This document shows, piece after piece, positions 19,472-30,206 of a stretch of 64,000 nt of DNA. The stretch covers positions 3,782,001 to 3,846,000 of the forward strand of contig JAQQWL010000005.1 in NCBI GenBank assembly GCA_038363925.1. Direction: 5' to 3'. Positions within the stretch are counted from its first letter, which is position 1. Each line of letters begins with the position of its first letter. The stretch is from Apiospora phragmitis. Taxonomy: Eukaryota; Ascomycota; Sordariomycetes; Amphisphaeriales; Apiosporaceae. A model generated the notes under the pieces. That model had not been told where the DNA came from. It saw only the letters and a program-made list of their open reading frames with translations, and ran no database searches. The translations under genes were made by a program, and so were the position numbers.

Positions 19472-21497
19472 TTAAAATACGTTACCCCTCGCCCTCTTCT
19501 CGCCAGACTCGAGTTTCTTGACGTTGATGTTCTTCCAGATAAGCACAGCCGCAATCAGCAGAGGAATGAGCGAGGCGCCCACAATCACCATAAGCCGCAT
19601 CACCACGCCGTACGCCTCGATGACCGCGTCGCGGATCGGGTTCCCGATGGGCTCCGCCATCTGGAGCGTGATGTCCCCGTAGATCGACGCCGCCTGGTCC
19701 TTGGCGTAGTCGGGCAGGAACTCGGCCAGCTTGCTCGGCAGGATGTTGGTCCAGATGCCGCCCGCGATGGCGTAGCCGATGCTGGAGCCGACGGCGCCGA
19801 ACAGGCCGTAGATGGCGATGGCGACGGCCACGTTCTGGTGGCCCACGGACGCCATGAGGGCGAGCTGCGACATCGTCGTGAGCATGCCCGTCGAGAAGCC
19901 GACCAGGACTTGGCACATGGTGAGGTACCCCACGTCGGCCCCGGCACTCGGAAGTGGATGATCAGGGCAGTGCCGAGCACGTAGATGGGAATCGCCGCCA
20001 TCGCCGGCCACTTTACATGGCCGTTGTACCGGATGAAACTACGGCAAAGTATTAGTATGACCCGACGGTGCTGTGCGTATTGACCTTTATTCAACTTACA
20101 GTGCGATAAAGGGGCCGGTGAAGTAGGATGTGAGCGAGTACGCATTGAGCACGTAGTTGGAGATGCTGATGCTCAGGCCGTTGACAACCTGGAGGTAGGA
20201 GCCGTAGTAGGCGTCCCAGACACTTCGAACGAAAGCAAGTCAGTACACATACAGCCAACACCGCATGGCGAGGTTAACTTACAAGGTTGTCAAGAAGACG
20301 AAGAAGTACGTCATGGCTGCACCGAGCACGGTTCGATTCTTGAGGAGCTCGAAAGGGAAGAACTGGACGGGTGCGAAGTATTTCTCCCAGACCAAGAAAG
20401 CAACGAGGGACACCACGCCCATGACAATCATGACGATGATGCTGGCACTCTCCCAAGAGTGGGTGGCGGACGATACGAGACTGAACGGGAGGGTGATCAG
20501 GGTGAAGCCCGCCGTGATGAGAATCGCACCAAGCACTGGGGTTACGTTAGCATCCTGGCATCGTACGGCAACCTGCATCACGAGCGATGCTGGTGCACCA
20601 GCTCGCTCCCAAGGAGGGGCGAACTTACCGTCAAAGTCGATGATGTAGAACTTTGCCGATTCCAATCGCGAGCGACCGGATTTGGGGCGGATCAGGCCGA
20701 GCTTCTTCGCCTTGCGCTCGTGAAACCACAAGACGCCGACCACAGGCGCAGAAAAGACGAGCAAGATGATGAGAAACGCGGCGAACGCCCATCGGAAGTT
20801 GGCCCTGTAGTAGAAGAGCTCGGCGATGACGGGGCCGGCGAAGGTGGTGCAGAGGTTGGGCGTCGAGTTGATGGTGAAGATGATCATGCGGTTCCGCAGT
20901 GACGTGATGTCGGCGACGAAGACCTCGATGATGAAGCCGAGGGCCACGTTGCCGACCCAGTAGAAGACCTGGGCGGCCGCGTACGTCTCGACGTTCTGGC
21001 AGGTCGCCTTCATGACCATGCCGACGGTGATGAGCAGGAGCGCGCCGACGAAGCCCTCCATGCGGCCCCGGATGTCGATGATCTTGCCGATGCTGAGCGT
21101 CACGACGCCGCCGATGATGCGGGCCGCGATGCTGATGACGGCCAGGAGGCCGTGTTCGTCGAACGAGCTCGTGATGTAGGGGCTCAGGGCGCCCTCGACG
21201 GAGCCGAGCATGGCGGCCACGAAGCTGACGAGCCATAACCTATGGAGAGAGAAAGGGGGAGATTTCAGTCAGTGCAATGTTCAAAGAGGGATACCGATTG
21301 ATCTCGGAAACTCGTGACGGGTTAAGCTCACAGAACGAAGGTTGACCACAAGGCCTTCTTGGACCAGACAGCCGTGATCGCTTCGACACGCTTCACACCC
21401 TGGGCATGGGTCGAGCTATTGTCTGGCTCAGATTTCGCATCGGCGCCCACGTGCACCTCGTGGGCGGGGTTTTGTCGTCGGCGGCGCGCTTTTCCAT
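19472..21497 (-). CDS. MFS siderophore-iron transporter, SIT1/MirB type (two frameshifts)
   Basis: Members of this 14-helix major facilitator family take up ferric siderophores at the plasma membrane or vesicles. Five exons fit in phase: 21497-21332, 21239-20629, 20535-20283, 20222-20100 and 20038-19472 (introns 60-93 nt), giving about 573 residues. A hydrophilic N-terminus precedes the first helix (A-L-W-S-T-F-V-L-L-W-L-V-S-F). The family hallmarks are visible: G-S-V-E-G-A-L-S-P-Y-I-T-S-S-F, the loop W-D-A-Y-Y-G-S-Y-L-Q-V-V-N, and G-H-Q-N-V-A-V-A-I-A. One base is missing in the run 21466-21469 and one near 19945-19950; with both counted the length is divisible by three. Iron regulation is suggested by three ATCAGATAA sites upstream. 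The ligand cannot be told from sequence. No siderophore synthetase lies nearby. Confidence 0.88.
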
Positions 21498-22432: not shown

Positions 22433-22849
22433 CTCAATTGAGATCTTATCGATCATAGCGTCTCTCTCTCGTAGGTAGGGGCCACTTTCCCGAGGCTGAA
22501 CAGGGCTTGGGGAAAAGAGATACACTAACGATGGATTACTGTTCCCATCTGTCGTCCAATATTGTACATATCCCTCCCTTCCATGCAGCTTTTGCCACAG
22601 GTCCTCGGTTAAGCTGGCTTGGGTAATGTGAAAGCCCTTCCTCTCCAAACAGTGCCATGATGGATTTGAGTATTTCCTTTATTCGACAGTATAGCACTCG
22701 TTTTGCAACAAAATCCCCCTGTTCAAACACTCTATACCATATTAACCATCAACCGTGGCCCCTTCGCGCTTCATACACTCGTCGGGACAGCTTTCTCGCC
22801 TCCCAATATGATCACAGTCCACAGTAAACAATGAGCCTGTTATGGTGAA

Positions 22850-24110
22850 TAGTGAGTAGAGAATAATGCTGCCTGCGAACGTTGTCATCGACCCTTACTG
22901 TGGGAGCTTCTTTCTGTGCTGATATGACGTCGTCGCACTGCTGGAGAGCAACCTTCGATAGGCCCTTGTGGAGGGCCAGGGCAGCTTCGAAGTTCCTGGT
23001 GAGGACGATGCTGGTGTGTGTGTGACGTGACTCGTGTCGTGTCGTGTCTTCGGCATTTTCAGTCTGATCTCGAGGGCTCAGTCGACACACTCCGACACAG
23101 TTTCGTCGTCGCCCGCCGCCATGTAACTCGCATAGTACCCGATTGAAAATATGGAGGACCCTCTCGCTTAGAATCTTGGCGGGTTGATATCGACCTTGAA
23201 CCTCGTACGCCAGAGCCAGATTAGGCCTTTGTTGTCAGCGTCCGCGGGTTCTTATCCCATAACATTTGGGCTAGAGCATCTCGACAGTGGTTAAATGAAG
23301 ATTCAGCCTTCACATATTTACCCCGGTACTCATACATTAGAACAAGGTCATGCTCCGAATGAAGAGTGTTTAGGTGTGTGTCTCACCAAGGACACTTCTC
23401 ACCTTTGCAAGCACACTTTGCAGAACCTCCTCAGCAGCCTCCCAGGCGCCATTGCATGCATGTTATATTACATGCTCCATAGGCGCTGTTCCGCCTTCAA
23501 GGTGTGCATGTCTTCTCGGGCCACTAGAGAAACCCACCTGTCGAAACCCAGCTTGAAGTGATACGCCAATTCAGAAGCCGACTCTAATCAGGGTCAACAT
23601 TTTTGATGCCCAGAAGGGCTGCATGGAACTAATGGGCAAGCTTGGCTGCCTCGTCTAGCTTTCCCGAGGCTCTGAGGAAGAATGATAGCTGGTAAGTGCG
23701 TGCAATATACTAGATGGCGTTTGGGTCCGTTTATGAGCAGGCGAACTTCAAATGTCTCCAGCCGATCGGGTTCAGGAAGTTTGTTGAGACTGGATGATTA
23801 CCAGCCAAGAGCCCTCGTCCTCCGTAGTCTTTAGAATATCTGGCGTCGGGGAAGTAAGGCTCAATGTATGCTCCAAACTTGACATCGTACCTTATCATGC
23901 AGGAAGAAATCCTCTCCCACTGCCTTTAGCTGTGATTTCTTGTTGCGAAGGTATAGCCTTGATGTATCACTGGCTTCGTCGAGTGCGTCAACCATGATGC
24001 ATGTAGGGTTTGTTTCTGTCTGAAGTAGTTGAAGGAATACCCTAGCCCGTTCAGTCTCGGTTCCTTGCTGTTGGATACGAGCACTCTCGATGAACTCGCT
24101 GTACACATCC
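22850..24110 (-). pseudogene. relic of a NACHT/TPR NOD-like receptor gene
   Basis: Reading the minus strand from 24,106 downward, a segment T-C-I-M-V-D-A-L-D-E-A (about 23,965-24,000) resembles the Walker B region of fungal NACHT domains. Further downstream, in several frames and broken by stops, come typical TPR pieces: G-K-L-D-E-A-A-K-L-A (about 23,635-23,665), W-E-A-A-E-E-V-L-Q-S-V-L-A-K-V (about 23,410-23,460), N-L-A-L-A-Y-E-V-Q-G-R-Y (about 23,180-23,220), and N-F-E-A-A-L-A-L-H-K-G-L (about 22,960-23,000). The order NACHT then TPR repeats matches fungal NLR proteins, known for non-self recognition. The distances between blocks are too short and the frames too broken for an active gene. 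It shows no strong RIP signature, so it probably decayed by deletion and drift. Confidence 0.7.
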
Positions 24111-24599
24111 CTTTCTTGAGTCCAGTAACACGTGCCAGCATTAGTTTGATATAATATAGATATTTGGGTTATGAAAATACCACCCTGTTTGTATCCTGGT
24201 CGTGGAATAGCTGATTATCTATTTTGGAGTACAATGTAGAGGTCATAACCAGCGCTGTGTTTATTTAGAGAATTATTAATGGCCCCGAAAACTTCAAAAT
24301 CCCACGCATAATATCACTTGCATTCTCTCGTGTTTAACAAAAGCTAAAAGAGTGTGTGGGCATCTATCTGTACGCTGCCAAAAGAGCTACCATATAAACC
24401 GAGTGAGATCTTCTTGGCTCTCGGGAAGGGAAGGAGAAAGTACGACCGCAGTCAACCATAACTTGCCCCAATGTGCTCTTCTGCCGTCAACCTGCCACTT
24501 TCCCTGCACTGCCACTGTTGCCTGCGTTGCAGTGTTGATCAACTGATGAATCTTCCCGCTACCATGCACAGGTCCCACTCATACAGAGAGAGTTAATAC
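24111..24599. other. intergenic region
   Basis: No gene is visible. The right side is probably the 3' untranslated part of the repeat-peptide precursor that ends at 24600. The left side may hold further unrecognisable NLR remains. Confidence 0.5.
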
Positions 24600-24992
24600 T
24601 CAATACTTAGCATATCCCCGCTCGGCGGCGTCCTGATCCTGCTCCAAGCCGGTGCGCTTGGCGTAACCTCTCTCGGCAGCGTCCTGGTCCTGTTCGGAGA
24701 CAGCACGCTTAGCGTAGCCTCTCTCGGCGGCATCCTGATCCTGTTCCAAAACAGCACGTTTGGCGTAGCCTCTCTCGCAGAAACCTGGTCCTGGTCCAGC
24801 CCGGTGCGGACAACAAGAGGCGCAGCCGCATCTGTTGATGGTTGTTCAGCTTGAACTTTCGGTGCAGTACTATCGCGGCAATGGGGGGATTTGCTGGAAC
24901 TACTAACCGTGGATAGCGCCATTTGCCATCAACGGCATCGCAAGCGCGCTGGCTAGAAAGTGAAGGAGTACGACAACATTGCGGCCGAGCAT
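24600..24992 (-). CDS. secreted multi-repeat peptide precursor with Kex2 sites, dikaritin (UstA)-like
   Basis: Exons fit as 24992-24908 and 24831-24600, with a 76-nt intron (donor GTTAGT, branch CTGAA, acceptor CAACAG); the product is about 105 residues. An 18-residue signal peptide (M-L-G-R-N-V-V-V-L-L-H-F-L-A-S-A-L-A) leads to a short linker and four repeats. Each repeat has an acidic spacer of the type E-Q-D-Q-D-A-A and then E-R-G-Y-A-K-R. The K-R pairs are ideal Kex2 sites; the last copy ends G-Y-A-K-Y and stops. Tyr is the only aromatic residue in the repeats. This layout (signal peptide, repeated cores, dibasic sites, UstYa genes beside it) is that of fungal dikaritin-type RiPP precursors such as UstA. 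One base is missing at 24776/24777 between the first spacer and the first G-Y-A-K-R. The product and its activity are unknown. A Kex2-processed secreted repeat protein without modification is the alternative. Confidence 0.8.
24603..24830 (-). repeat. 51-bp tandem repeats encoding the candidate core peptides
   Basis: The E-R-G-Y-A-K-[R/Y] codons recur at 24756-24776, 24705-24725, 24654-24674 and 24603-24623, exactly 51 bases (17 codons) apart. The spacers start A-V-L, A-V-S or T-G-L and continue with E/D-Q-D-Q. Codon third positions differ between copies, so the protein repeat is conserved more than the DNA. Confidence 0.92.
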
Positions 24993-26372
24993 TTTGGTGG
25001 AATGTGAGGTTTTGTCTGGGTGGCTGGGTTTGATGTCTAGTATAAATGGGTTCAAGGTAGTAGTAAGAGATATGGATTGAATCGTGTCTTTGCTAGATGT
25101 GCCGAAGAAACGGTGTAGTGACGGAACTATCGCCTCCCTTTTATACATACACACACCAGGCACTCGAAGGAGCCGCCTCTGCCCCTTCTCCCAGAACCTT
25201 TGATGTTTCCGAGCATCATGATGATTCGCTTTGGACCTACCTACCCCCTCCTGGGTCCAAGGTTATCTTCCACATCGTGTACCACAGGGAGGCCGGCGGT
25301 GTCGCCAACGAAGGATCTACATTCGCGAGCAGCATGGCTGATACCATATCGTATCACGGGACAACGAACGTGCATATGCAGTCCGGAGTCGTGTAGGAGC
25401 TGGAGAGGCATCGCGACTACTATGGTCACCCCTACCCCTTTACTACCCCTTTACCCCTCTGGCATGCTGGTGACAGGTGTAACCGAGATACAAAGAGCGT
25501 TATCAGAAAGTGAGGTTGACTCGTTTGTCTCACAGATCCCAGACGCGTCGACATGGTCACCCCTCAGTCTGTATACCCTGTTTGCGCGGCCTATCCGGTT
25601 GGCAGATATCCGATATCCTCAGGCGAAAAAGGGGCACAGTCAATACTTTGGTCTACTAAGATCCACCCACGCCTCGATGAATCTCGCGCCCACTTACATC
25701 CCGTCCAATGGGATCCCCATGCGTATGGCTGCGGCGCAGTAGATACACTTGGAGTCACCAAAAAGGCTTGATGCCATCAAGCAATCATGCAGGAGAAAAC
25801 CGCTGTCCCTACCCGAATTGGCAGGTATGTAAATGCTGGCATATCTTCAAGGCGCCGATCTAGTCTGTTATGGTCGAGGCTCTCAATCCTTCGCAATCCT
25901 TCAGCCCTCTAGCAACAACAAACGTCATGCCACACTGTGTTATACGGCGCAGAATGCGGTTTTCCCCTTATCGAGCGGCATATATTGCGTAGGAGGCTGC
26001 AGTAAAGACCGACGCTTATGCGGCAACACGTCTCAGGTGCGCCACCATCCATGCACGTTCAAATCCATTGAGTATCTCGACAGTCATACGCATATCAAAG
26101 TGAGCACTTTGGGAACGTTGAAGATGCACTGGTCTTGCATCTCTGTTTCATCTGATTGGATAGACTGGGGTACTCAGGCACTCGGCCAAGACATGCATAC
26201 TTGAGAAACCGTTAGATTGCCCGGCTCTGCAGCCGCCTATGATGATTCGTTGTCTGGTCTCCCTTCTCCCCCAGTCACGGTCTATCTCGGAGCGTATTGT
26301 TACTGACACATGTGAGGTACGTCCCATCGTCCCGAGGGACCAAGCTTTTCATCACACTCTTGGATGGGGGGT
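24993..26372. other. intergenic region upstream of the peptide precursor
   Basis: These 1.38 kb separate the precursor from the co-oriented UstYa-like gene. They contain the precursor promoter (an in-frame upstream ATG at 25163 exists but would bury the signal peptide). An open frame at 25,200-25,742 on the plus strand shows no domain and a biased composition, so it is not called. No further RiPP gene is recognised. Confidence 0.5.
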
Positions 26373-27382
26373 CTATCTCAGTCGTCTAGATGAGTAATTA
26401 TGCCCCTGAACCACTGGCCCGTGGTTCTCCTCCATCCAAGACCGGATCGCCTCTGGGTCCTTGCACTGGTGCGGAACCCCCCAGCCGTCCACCTCGTCCC
26501 CGCTGACCCCCTCGCGGTGCCTCGCCCACTCGATGGTCAGATCGGCGGAGCACAGAATGCTCTGGACCAAGTATGCGAAGCAGTGCTGGGGGTGGCGATC
26601 TCGCAGCATGTGTTGTACCGCCTCCTCCCTGACGGCATCAGTCCAGCTTGGCTCCGACATGTCGGCGATCAGCTTCCAGAAGTGGGCACGAACTAGGCCC
26701 TAATCAAGGTGGCACAGTATTTTACTTGGTCAGTCTTTTCGCTTGCAGAGGAGCGGTGGCAACGGCAAACACATGGCTTGCCGGATGCGGTGGAGGGGGG
26801 TGGGCTCTCACAAGACAGTGCAACTGATGGTACATCGCTACCGAATACCGGTCGACGCCAGACTCGGTGGGAATCCCTCTCAGCAGCCTGTATACCTCTG
26901 GGCTCGATACGTTGACGAAACCACGGCCTATGGGCACGAGGGCGTCCCAAAATCGCTGGTTTTCCTCGCTGGGGGCTTCCATCAACGCCGGCTTGGCTTG
27001 GAAGACTATGTTCGTGGTTGGTACTAATCCGGGCAGATTAGCAATGCTCTTTCATAGAGAAAACTTTCATAGAGAAAACTTGGAATGACATTGTAGTTCA
27101 ATAGTGGAACTTACTCTCAGGAGCAAATTGGGGAAACGGCTCTTCCAGGTTGCCAGAGGCGTGAGCAGCCCCTGATACACTCGCATAAGTCGCAATGAGA
27201 TATGTAACAAGGCATCCAGCAGCGAAACTGATCAAAGGTAGCCAAGGAGGCTCTTGGATGGTGTGCTTTGTATAGTCGATGGTGTTGATATCATCCCCAG
27301 GAACCTGGAGGTAAGACGACTCGGGCATCTTGGACCGTAGGAATGGCACTTTACTGAGAAATCTCACCTTGAAGCACTTCAT
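26373..27382 (-). CDS. UstYa-like (DUF3328) oxidase A
   Basis: UstYa-family proteins are membrane-anchored oxidases that cyclise or cross-link core peptides in dikaritin biosynthesis. Exons are 27382-27115, 27023-26812 and 26699-26373 (introns 91 and 112 nt), with no frameshift; this gives 268 residues, or 250 if the second ATG (27328) is used. One membrane segment lies after a short cytosolic N-terminus (W-L-P-L-I-S-F-A-A-G-C-L-V-T-Y-L). The lumenal part carries the two signature motifs: H-Q-L-H-C (split by an intron just after the following Leu) and H-P-Q-H-C, followed by C-S-A-D-L-T and a late H-Q-C. These His/Cys motifs are thought to form the metal site. It is transcribed toward the precursor gene and is divergent from the second UstYa gene across 735 bases. 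Confidence 0.9.
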
Positions 27383-28117
27383 TTGGAGAAGGAAGAATTT
27401 GCTATGTAAAAGAAGCGACGAGGATATTCATCAGCACTCCTCGTTCGCCGTGGAAGTTCACTAATACCTCGGTCTCTCTCCAAGCGAAGGGGAATGACAC
27501 AGATAACGTCACTAGCTAGAAGCACTGTTACAACATCCGAGGTTCATTGCCGATTGTAACATTTCTTCCAATCTCGGATGCGTCACTGTACCCTGCTGAT
27601 AACAGGACTTGATCACTACAAGCACGCGAAGGATCAGTCTCTCTTGATCGACCAACATCATATTAGAGGAAGACGGGGCGGCTTATGACAGCCCATCCGG
27701 TTGGTGAAACACCAAGATTCTAGGAGCGCAGCATATAGGCGGTTGCATGGGTAAGTACTCACGATAACGGTGGAGCGCACATCATTAAAGACACACCTGA
27801 TTCCGCAGGGGCGTGTTGTATAGGATTCACTTCCGACTAATGTATCTCTTATGGACGGACTGCATACCGCCAATATCATCATGAACGTCATTCTGCGATT
27901 TCCTGTGCATTACCCCGCCTCCTTCGTGGATGGCGAGTTTCCTTCTATCCCCATCGACTGTATCTGCTGGACCATCTGTCCGTATGTCTCTGCCTTCTTT
28001 CTCCCTTCTGAACCCTCTGCTCTATCCCTATGCCTGTTCTCTTCAACGCTATCTCCCAACCCTTCACATTTCAGACTGCACCTGACGCGGATCAATTTTC
28101 AACAACAAGCCTACAAG
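27383..28117. promoter_or_regulatory. divergent promoter shared by the two UstYa-like genes
   Basis: The 735 bases between the two divergent starts probably drive both oxidases together. A CGG-N8-CCG inverted triplet lies at 27856-27869; Zn2Cys6 regulators often bind such pairs, but the site is short and could be chance. Pyrimidine-rich sequence at about 27,980-28,080 is likely the leader of the plus-strand gene. No cluster-specific regulator gene is present in the window. Confidence 0.5.
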
Positions 28118-29220
28118 ATGGCAAGAAAACACGACATGGACCCAGCATATCGCAGCTCACAGGACGACAGCTGGTCGTCCGACGAGCCGTTGATGCCAGA
28201 CTCTGAGAAAGCAGAGGAGTTAATTGCAGGAACACGAAAAACCACCCAAAGGAGACTGCTCTGGCCCTGGATCTTCCATGCCCTCCTTTTCATGTCCTAC
28301 AGCGTCGCGTATCTTGTGGCCTTCGATTACCGAACCGCAGACAAGATGTTTCACTCTGTAGCATACTGTGAGTCGGCTCGCCCGTAATGAGCGGTTAAAG
28401 CACACATTTGGCACCACGTCTTTATTGACAGCATGACTTAGCTCCGGCCAACGGCGCCCTCCGATACCGCAAGGTCTCCTACAACGGCGCGCTGCATCAA
28501 GCCAGCCCGTACCGTGGGGACCCGCGGCCGGAACTTGACCAGGCGTGGGCAGACCTCATCACCCACAACAACGTCCGTCTCAGCAAGGAGGAGCTTCATA
28601 TGATGAACAGGACTGCGCTGGAGCTTTACGACAAGTCCGGTTACTACGGGCAGCTGAGTGCGTTTCATCATCTGCACTGCTTAGTGAGTCTCATGAAACA
28701 ATATAATACCCACTTAACCTAGTGCACAGAGGCGTATATACGGCAATAACGGAAACTAAACATGGAACAGAAATACATCTGTCAAGTTCTTCACCCCGAA
28801 TACTACGATACCGACACCGCTGATCGGGACGAACACGTTGGTCAGTACTGCCATATAGCTAATATCCAACCCCCCTTTCTCGTCTTATTTTGGTTCTTGC
28901 CCCTCATGGGTACGTGAGGGACCACATCCCCAGCTTACGACACGCTAACATCCGCTCCCCGGCAAGACCATTGCATTGACGACATCCGTCAAGCACTCAT
29001 GTGCCACGCCGACACGTCCATCGTCACCTTTGACTGGAAATCGCCGGACTGGCGCGCCCCGTGGCCCAACTTCAGCATCGACCACACCTGCGCCGACTGG
29101 GACGCCCTCGACCGCTGGGCCGCGGCGCGCTCCTTCTCGTTGTTCGACCAACATTCCGTCGTGCATCCGCAACTTGATAAACCCTTTCTGTCTCTCCCCT
29201 TCCTAGATCTGTTGAATTAG
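28118..29220 (+). CDS. UstYa-like (DUF3328) oxidase B
   Basis: Exons are 28118-28367, 28442-28683, 28771-28840 and 28967-29220. All introns are GT..AG and in phase, and the length of 271 residues needs no correction. A charged cytosolic N-terminus is followed by one membrane segment (W-I-F-H-A-L-L-F-M-S-Y-S-V-A-Y-L-V). The family block S-P-A-N-G-A-L-R-Y follows, then S-P-Y-R-G-D-P-R-P-E-L-D-Q-A-W. Next comes the first signature H-H-L-H-C and the second H-V-D-H-C (its codons split by the third intron), with L-M-C-H-A-D after it and a conserved late W-x3-H-x-C region (F-S-I-D-H-T-C-A-D-W). The C-terminus F-D-Q-H-S-V-V-H-P is typical. It probably acts with oxidase A on the repeat peptide; ustiloxin-type clusters also use two such proteins. 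It is the best-preserved gene of the cluster. Confidence 0.93.
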
Positions 29221-29679
29221 CCGCGAGATAATGATCCTCCATCCCGTGTCGAAAAGAGAAACACAGCAACTGACTAGCTACTCGTTGTTCTTAGGCCTTG
29301 CATTTCCTGTGGTGGACGGTGCCGTTGAGATGATCTCCCACGGTCCCGACATGCATATTGTATGGCCCAGGGAGTAGCGTATCATCACCGCCGCATCCCG
29401 GCAATTAGCGTTTGTGTGACTTATAAGCATGACTTGGGAAATTAAAGGTGTTGATGTTATGATAGTAGCAAATGCATTTTCAGTCTCGTCAAGTGTTTCT
29501 GTACGCCACTCTTCGCTCTCTGCTATGCAGCACATTGGTCATGCCCGGTAAGAGCATCACCCAATTAGCGTCACAGTCGTAGAATGAACGACTGGAGTTT
29601 ATCGCCGGCGCCATGGGTGCTCGCAACTTACCTTGTAAAGTAGGACCCCATCTCACTGACCCGCCCGCCTTGCTAGAGT
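29221..29679. other. intergenic region with possible gene remains
   Basis: This stretch lies between oxidase B and the truncated unknown gene. On the plus strand a short open piece ends M-H-I-V-W-P-R-E at about 29,377, and a minus-strand open frame covers 29,278-29,535. Neither shows a domain. Upstream exons of the truncated gene may have been lost here. Confidence 0.4.
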
Positions 29680-30206
29680 GCTAGGCAGCGAGAGGGAACT
29701 ATCCACTTCGTCTGGGACCGCCCGGGCATCCTGTTCGTCGACCGCGAGGCCCTCGACGCCGGCCCCGCGCTCCTCTGTGCGCTCGAGAACAACGGCGCCG
29801 TGAGCCTCCGTCGCCGCGTCTGGCCGTTCACGTTGACGGACAAATGGGGGGGCCCTACGCGCAGAACGCCAAGGCGCTCCTGGAGGATACCCAATTCATC
29901 TCTAGGCTCGGAGTGAAGAAGTAAGTTGTTGTGCATGGGTCCGCCTCGATGATAATACCCGAGCAAAGCGCTGAACGTGGCCGGAACAGGACGAATATGG
30001 AGAAGGGGATCCTCGACTTCTTGGACGAGTTTGGACGCTATGTGGGAGGATCGCCTGACATGTGGCTGGACCTTATCGAGAGGTTCGCGCCCGGGTACCT
30101 AGATCTCGAGGAAGAAAGCAACGGCATGGCCTACGGGTACGATCACTCTAGGTTTTGGACAAAGGAACAGCTAGAGCAGCTTCCCCTAGAAGGTAATAAC
30201 GAGTAA
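29680..30206 (+). pseudogene. truncated, frameshifted gene of unknown function at the AT-rich boundary
   Basis: Two exons are visible: about 29,680-29,920 and 29,990-30,206 (intron with GTAAGT donor and AACAG acceptor, in phase). The first encodes I-H-F-V-W-D-R-P-G-I-L-F-V-D, then A-L-L-C-A-L-E-N-N-G-A, and, after a one-base loss around the G run 29,845-29,854, A-L-L-E-D-T-Q-F-I. The second encodes L-D-F-L-D-E-F-G-R-Y and ends E-G-N-N-E with the stop at 30204-30206. No start codon or upstream exon fits. I do not recognise the family. The composition is that of a real gene and differs sharply from the RIPed DNA starting a few bases later. It may be a former cluster member or an unrelated gene cut by transposon-driven rearrangement. 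Confidence 0.5.

What the first reader, a model, noticed from the sequence alone, without database searches (positions are those of the whole stretch)
24600..29220. Compact, apparently undescribed dikaritin-type RiPP cluster
A secreted repeat precursor with dibasic cleavage sites lies beside two UstYa/DUF3328 genes, each with a membrane anchor and two HxxHC motifs. Established dikaritin pathways (ustiloxin, phomopsin, asperipin) share exactly this combination. The repeated core here (E-R-G-Y-A) does not resemble the cores I know from those pathways, so the product is probably new. The oxidase genes are intact, in contrast to the many broken genes around, which suggests the pathway may be alive.
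Basis: partly seen in the sequence, partly recalled or inferred. Interest (0 to 1): 0.92.

Follow-up and report, generated by a model that had tools for sequence, protein, structure and literature searches.

The report
Fungal cyclic-peptide locus, possibly eroding
A three-gene locus in the fungus Apiospora phragmitis looks like one more member of a known class that makes small cross-linked peptides, with a repeat unit not found elsewhere here, but its precursor gene carries a break in its first repeat that splicing may or may not bypass.

Summary
Units 2-4 differ mostly by synonymous changes in the claimed frame (pN/pS 0.12), so it was selected. Corrections: (1) the first repeat is one base shorter than the others; with the best-looking donor and acceptor, leader and repeats fall in different frames. 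Other splice pairs, one of them NCBI's, join them in frame. (2) The second oxidase is not cleanly intact: 7 of 16 aligned relatives carry a last exon that survives here (29295-29377), but no canonical donor stands where they join it. (3) No tyrosinase was found nearby. Filing: new member of a known kind, a dikaritin-type Kex2-repeat + UstYa locus; 1,758 such repeat genes with DUF3328 neighbours were predicted in 1,461 fungal genomes. The core is apparently new. Whether the pathway is alive is undecided; RNA-seq would settle it.

The parts
24600..24992 (-). precursor (Kex2-type repeat protein) gene, ATG 24992, stop 24600-24602; NCBI PG994_005178, 89 aa
24939..24992 (-). signal-peptide-like N terminus with an A-L-A motif (hydropathy only; SignalP not run)
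24785..24907 (-). intron of the NCBI model (ends inside repeat 1); alternatives 24907-24832 (out of frame with the repeats), 24907-24791 and 24933-24832 (both in frame)
24756..24805 (-). repeat unit 1, 50 bases, one shorter than the others: its two halves lie in different frames
24705..24755 (-). repeat unit 2, AVLEQDQDAAERGYA-KR
24654..24704 (-). repeat unit 3, AVSEQDQDAAERGYA-KR
24603..24653 (-). repeat unit 4, TGLEQDQDAAERGYA-KY then stop
25140..25145 (-). TATAAA about 150 bases upstream of the precursor ATG
26373..27328 (-). gene A, UstYa family oxidase; exons 27328-27115, 27023-26812, 26699-26373; 250 aa; PG994_005179
27329..28117 (.). 789-base divergent intergenic region between the two oxidase genes
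28118..29220 (+). gene B, UstYa family oxidase; exons 28118-28367, 28442-28683, 28771-28840, 28967-29220; 271 aa; PG994_005180
29295..29377 (+). preserved counterpart of a last exon seen in 7 of 16 aligned gene B relatives; joining to 28967-29220 uncertain

Best explanation
This is a dikaritin-type (ustiloxin-type) RiPP locus. The small gene encodes a secreted precursor whose repeats are cut by the Golgi protease Kex2 after KR, giving acidic 15-residue peptides ending in E-R-G-Y-A; two membrane-anchored UstYa oxidases then oxidise each peptide, most likely at the Tyr, by analogy with characterised UstY enzymes. Shown here: gene content, domains, motifs, past selection on the repeat frame. Inferred: secretion, Kex2 cutting, cross-linking, product. 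As assembled, leader and repeats are in one frame only under some splice pairs, so the locus is in early decay, bypassed by splicing, or mis-assembled at one base.
For: UstYa hits 2e-26 and 1.2e-51. HxxHC His and Cys kept in 12 of 12 and 13 of 13 non-gap rows of the gene A family (13 of its 19 matches aligned, own record included; P0104, which does not show the first motif, was among the six left out) and in 38 of 38 and 38-39 of 38-39 non-gap rows of the gene B family (39 of its 89 matches aligned). Repeat frame pN/pS 0.12 over the three pairs of units 2-4, against 4.66 and 1.85 in the other frames. NCBI's model also gives a repeat protein with this leader. Best matches to genes A and B carry neighbouring locus tags in A. 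hydei (PG997_000222/223) and, with one tag between, in Chlorociboria aeruginascens (B7494_g1867/g1865). DUF3328 genes peak next to Kex2 repeat genes and Tyr is enriched in such repeats, 65.6% against 38.2% (PMC7329392, section 7 read).
Against: Break in unit 1. The NCBI acceptor at 24785 comes after eight AGs in its intron (some too near the donor to count), among them the canonical-looking CAACAG at 24832; the in-frame pair 24933-24832 has a poor donor, GTTGAT. Gene B's last exon lacks a canonical donor where relatives splice, and its intron 3 runs GTCAGT...AAG. The annotated gene B proteins of A. hydei (P0006) and Chlorociboria (P0018) lack the first HxxHC stretch, by misannotation or real loss. 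No precursor homologue was found in any other Apiospora (limited to 45-142 aa and shared 5-residue words). No tyrosinase match lies between C5:3638033 and C5:4124555. No expression data.
Confidence: 0.75

Rival explanations
1. The locus is a dying dikaritin cluster: once functional, it now makes no usable precursor and gene B is losing its 3' end, next to a RIP-mutated AT-rich block.
For: Unit 1 break; gene B last exon not canonically joined; weak relics to the left and a block with composite RIP index above 1 from 30201 on; no precursor homologue found for relatives that keep the oxidases (limited).
Against: Repeats 2-4 show no stops or further breaks; precursor and genes A and B show no RIP signature (index -0.33 to -0.65); gene A is clean; in-frame splice models exist.
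Confidence: 0.3
2. Splicing bypasses the break: an acceptor inside unit 1, or an earlier donor, puts leader and all four ERGYA motifs in one frame, and the pathway works.
For: 24907-24791, 24907-24785 and 24933-24832 each give leader plus four ERGYA motifs in one frame; the second is NCBI's model.
Against: The first two introns contain DNA homologous to the start of the other repeats and pass over a canonical-looking acceptor; the third has a poor donor. NCBI's model may be only a gene-finder's choice of frame.
Confidence: 0.3
3. The repeat protein yields linear secreted peptides (pheromone-like or other) and the UstYa genes serve something else.
For: 78% of Kex2 repeat proteins have no DUF3328 neighbour (PMC7329392, section 7 read), and DUF3328 enzymes also act in non-RiPP pathways (PMC12048977, passages).
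Against: Direct adjacency to two UstYa genes; Tyr in every unit; with three exceptions, mating-factor and pheromone repeat proteins had no DUF3328 neighbours (PMC7329392, abstract and passages).
Confidence: 0.12

Closest known systems
Ustiloxin B cluster (ustA, ustYa, ustYb, ustQ ...)
   Same: Signal peptide plus KR-delimited repeats with an acidic stretch before a Tyr-containing core; two UstYa homologues
   Different: Ustiloxin has 16 repeats of YAIG, a tyrosinase, methyltransferase and further enzymes (PMC6514808, passages); here four repeats ending RGYA, Tyr one residue from KR, and none of those enzymes found beside it
Asperipin-2a cluster (aprA, aprY, aprT, aprR)
   Same: Compact, no tyrosinase among its four genes, UstYa homologue as cyclase
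   Different: One UstYa gene, core FYYTGY, transporter and reductase in the cluster (PMC6514808, passages); here two UstYa genes, one Tyr per unit, and an MFS gene 3.3 kb from the precursor not shown to belong
Epichloecyclin precursor GigA
   Same: Signal sequence and four KR-delimited repeats, Tyr as the cyclised residue (PMC6514808, passages)
   Different: Sequences not compared here; whether epichloecyclins are dikaritins was left open by that review
KEP + DUF3328 loci (Umemura 2020)
   Same: Nearly meets the definition (PMC7329392, section 13 read): leader, tandem units of >=8 residues between dibasic sites, DUF3328 gene next door
   Different: Only units 2 and 3 are flanked by KR on both sides; type not matched to a listed one

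Membership tests
UstYa/DUF3328 oxidases (genes A and B) | PF11807 domain over the curated cut-off | tested here: met
   93.7 and 176.1 bits against 25
UstYa/DUF3328 oxidases (genes A and B) | two HxxHC motifs | tested here: met
   Residues 137/178 and 159/186; for gene B the second depends on an AAG acceptor supported by relatives
UstYa/DUF3328 oxidases (genes A and B) | dicopper oxidase activity | not testable with these tools
   Stated for the family in PMC12186524 (passages)
dikaritin | precursor with signal peptide and repeated cores between Kex2 sites | tested here: inconclusive
   Repeats, KR sites and leader present; joined in one frame by some splice pairs and not by the best-looking one
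dikaritin | DUF3328 genes near the precursor (class-defining) | tested here: met
   Two, next to it
dikaritin | tyrosinase in the cluster (older definition, later relaxed; PMC12048977) | tested here: not met
   No PF00264 match between C5:3638033 and C5:4124555, in a list that is a lower bound; the four asperipin genes include none either (PMC6514808)
dikaritin | methyltransferase, peptidase or transporter in the cluster (older definition) | tested here: inconclusive
   Pfam run on 8 open frames besides A and B within 22815-30203 found none; an MFS/TRI12 match at 20282-21268 may or may not belong
dikaritin | cross-linked peptide product | not testable with these tools
   needs LC-MS and deletions
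Ascomycete alpha-pheromone precursor | pheromone domain or pheromone-like repeats | tested here: not met
   No Pfam pheromone family among matches at E<=1 for the repeat frame; two DUF3328 neighbours, rare for that group

The most novel reading that the evidence does not exclude
A tyrosinase-free two-oxidase dikaritin type, its oxidase pair kept from Apiospora to Chlorociboria, acts on a core ending Arg-Gly-Tyr-Ala with the Tyr one residue from the Kex2 site, so it would make a cross-link different from those of ustiloxin, phomopsin and asperipin; in A. phragmitis the broken precursor is kept working by splicing around its own first repeat.
Probability: 0.2. Interest if true: 0.6.

Novelty: new member of a known kind. 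Interest (0 to 1): 0.38.

Why it matters
PMC10512285 (2022, passages) counts five reported dikaritins although 1,758 Kex2 repeat genes with DUF3328 neighbours had been predicted (PMC7329392), so a compact locus with a clear core is a tractable lead on what UstYa enzymes can cross-link. This one has two oxidases and no tyrosinase found nearby, which would make the chemistry easy to assign if the precursor is expressed. The precursor break also makes a testable case of RiPP decay or splice rescue.

Full report
Source. The genome holding the window has 52.67 Mb in 19 contigs and the window is C5:3782001-3846000. So the window is very probably that assembly. Apiospora phragmitis belongs to Apiosporaceae, Amphisphaeriales.

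Precursor. On the minus strand an ATG at 24992 opens MLGRNVVVLLHFLASALAMP..., with a hydrophobic stretch (mean hydropathy 2.46 over 13 residues) and a TATAAA about 150 bases upstream. Downstream lie four tandem units: unit 1 of 50 bases (24805-24756) and units 2-4 of 51 bases (24755-24603). Units 2-4 read AV(L/S)EQDQDAAERGYA-KR twice and TGLEQDQDAAERGYA-KY-stop. Summed over the three pairs of units 2, 3 and 4 in that frame there are 26 synonymous changes over 33.3 sites and 11 nonsynonymous over 119.7 (pN/pS 0.12), against 4.66 and 1.85 in the other two frames. That is good evidence that the frame was translated and selected; the three pairs come from one array and are not independent.

The break. 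The intron with donor GTTAGT at 24907 and acceptor CAACAG at 24832 continues in frame as DAAAPLVVRTGLDQDQ, whose TGLDQDQ matches the start of unit 4 (TGLEQDQ), then leaves the repeat frame inside unit 1 because unit 1 is one base shorter. Other splice pairs put leader and repeats in one frame: 24907-24785, which is the 89-residue NCBI protein, 24907-24791, and 24933-24832, whose donor GTTGAT is poor and which reads the first half of unit 1 in a foreign frame. Each gives four ERGYA motifs; pairs ending further into the array give fewer or cut the first. Eight AGs precede 24785 within the NCBI intron, some too near the donor to count. The sequence alone does not say which pair is used, nor whether the short unit is an assembly error. 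I propose no repair.

Oxidases. Gene A (27328-26373, minus, three exons, 250 aa) and gene B (28118-29220, plus, four exons, 271 aa) hit Pfam UstYa at 2e-26 and 1.2e-51. Their family profiles are homologous (hhalign probability 98.7). Both carry two HxxHC motifs and a hydrophobic stretch near the N terminus. The motif His and Cys residues are kept in all non-gap rows of the family alignments used: 13 of the 19 gene A matches, P0104 without the first motif being among those left out, and 39 of the 89 gene B matches; own records are included, and one row of each alignment has a gap at the first motif. Gene A is clean, and my model adds six residues that NCBI's lacks and that relatives such as P0093 and P0095 support. 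Gene B has weaknesses. Intron 3 runs GTCAGT...AAG, the acceptor needed for HVDHC, which relatives show, whereas NCBI's model uses a CAG and loses the motif. Seven of the 16 relatives aligned (P0003, P0004, P0005, P0007, P0012, P0017, P0018) continue after HPxLG or its like with a last exon; the other nine end differently or earlier. Its counterpart GLAFPVVDGAVEMISHGPDMHIVWPRE is preserved at 29295-29377. No canonical donor stands at the matching place, so the reading ends with a short unrelated tail at 29220. The tail lies outside the stretch matched by the Pfam domain (residues 44-241).

Wider setting. The genome has 31 UstYa matches, three of them in this locus; I grouped the other 28 into 18 regions. 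A scan for KR-delimited repeats hit the window array and 2 of the 18 regions: L034, where a second repeat protein is read, and L048, a weak chance-like pair; 16 of 18 had none. Precursor and genes A and B show no RIP signature (index -0.41, -0.65, -0.33), while 30201-64000 is strongly RIP-like (index 1.06-1.14). No tyrosinase match lies between C5:3638033 and C5:4124555 (63 matches listed, a lower bound).

Relatives. Gene B has 89 matches and gene A 19, own records included. Locus tags put the best matches side by side in A. hydei and one tag apart in Chlorociboria; the annotated gene B proteins of both lack the first HxxHC stretch, so those models are incomplete or the genes damaged. The repeat protein matched only its own record among 640 candidates at E<=10; that search covers 45-142 residue proteins sharing 5-residue words, so absence elsewhere is not shown.

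Literature. KEPs with DUF3328 neighbours number 1,758 of 7,878, and 2,560 KEPs have no homologue (PMC7329392: abstract, sections 7 and 13 and passages). Definitions of dikaritins and the role of HxxHC come from PMC12048977 (passages); ustiloxin, asperipin and epichloecyclin from PMC6514808 (passages); the count of five reported dikaritins from PMC10512285 (passages); dicopper chemistry of UstY from PMC12186524 (passages). PMC10999098 (passages) describes A. arundinis with two predicted RiPP clusters and has no occurrence of 'phragmitis'. No listing about this locus was found; the five papers that name the species were seen as listings only, and most subscription journals are not held.

Judgement. 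The gene set works like a dikaritin pathway and meets the class-defining test of DUF3328 genes near a Kex2 repeat gene, with the precursor's continuity unresolved. It does not meet the older list that includes a tyrosinase. The core is apparently new, but diverse cores are the rule in this class (PMC7329392). Whether it is active is open.

Noticed in passing
L034 (G000:C11:3908200-3918199) 942-2063, minus: A second Kex2-type repeat protein with EPHHKGAKGG...KR and acidic ...AEFDKR repeats, about 2.7 kb from a UstYa match (C11:3912954); resembles the di-histidine types of PMC7329392
   Followed up: partly
L043 (G000:C7:918000-927999): Two UstYa matches (C7:920618, 925634) flank a tyrosinase match (C7:922192, 8.7e-12); no KR-repeat precursor was detected there
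   Followed up: no
22815-24214: Possible remnants of an NLR-like gene, minus strand (NPHP3_N 6.2e-5 and TPR_10 0.0081, both just under or under the Pfam cut-off)
   Followed up: no
30201-64000: AT-rich block (GC 0.17-0.27) with composite RIP index above 1, starting about 1 kb after gene B
   Followed up: partly
29677-30203: Open pieces in different frames, no Pfam match at E<=1; perhaps a remnant of an unidentified gene
   Followed up: no
20282-21268: MFS transporter frame (TRI12 4.4e-11, MFS_1 3.7e-9), same strand as the precursor and 3.3 kb from it, perhaps continuing to 19475 (no Pfam match there); could be an exporter or unrelated
   Followed up: partly
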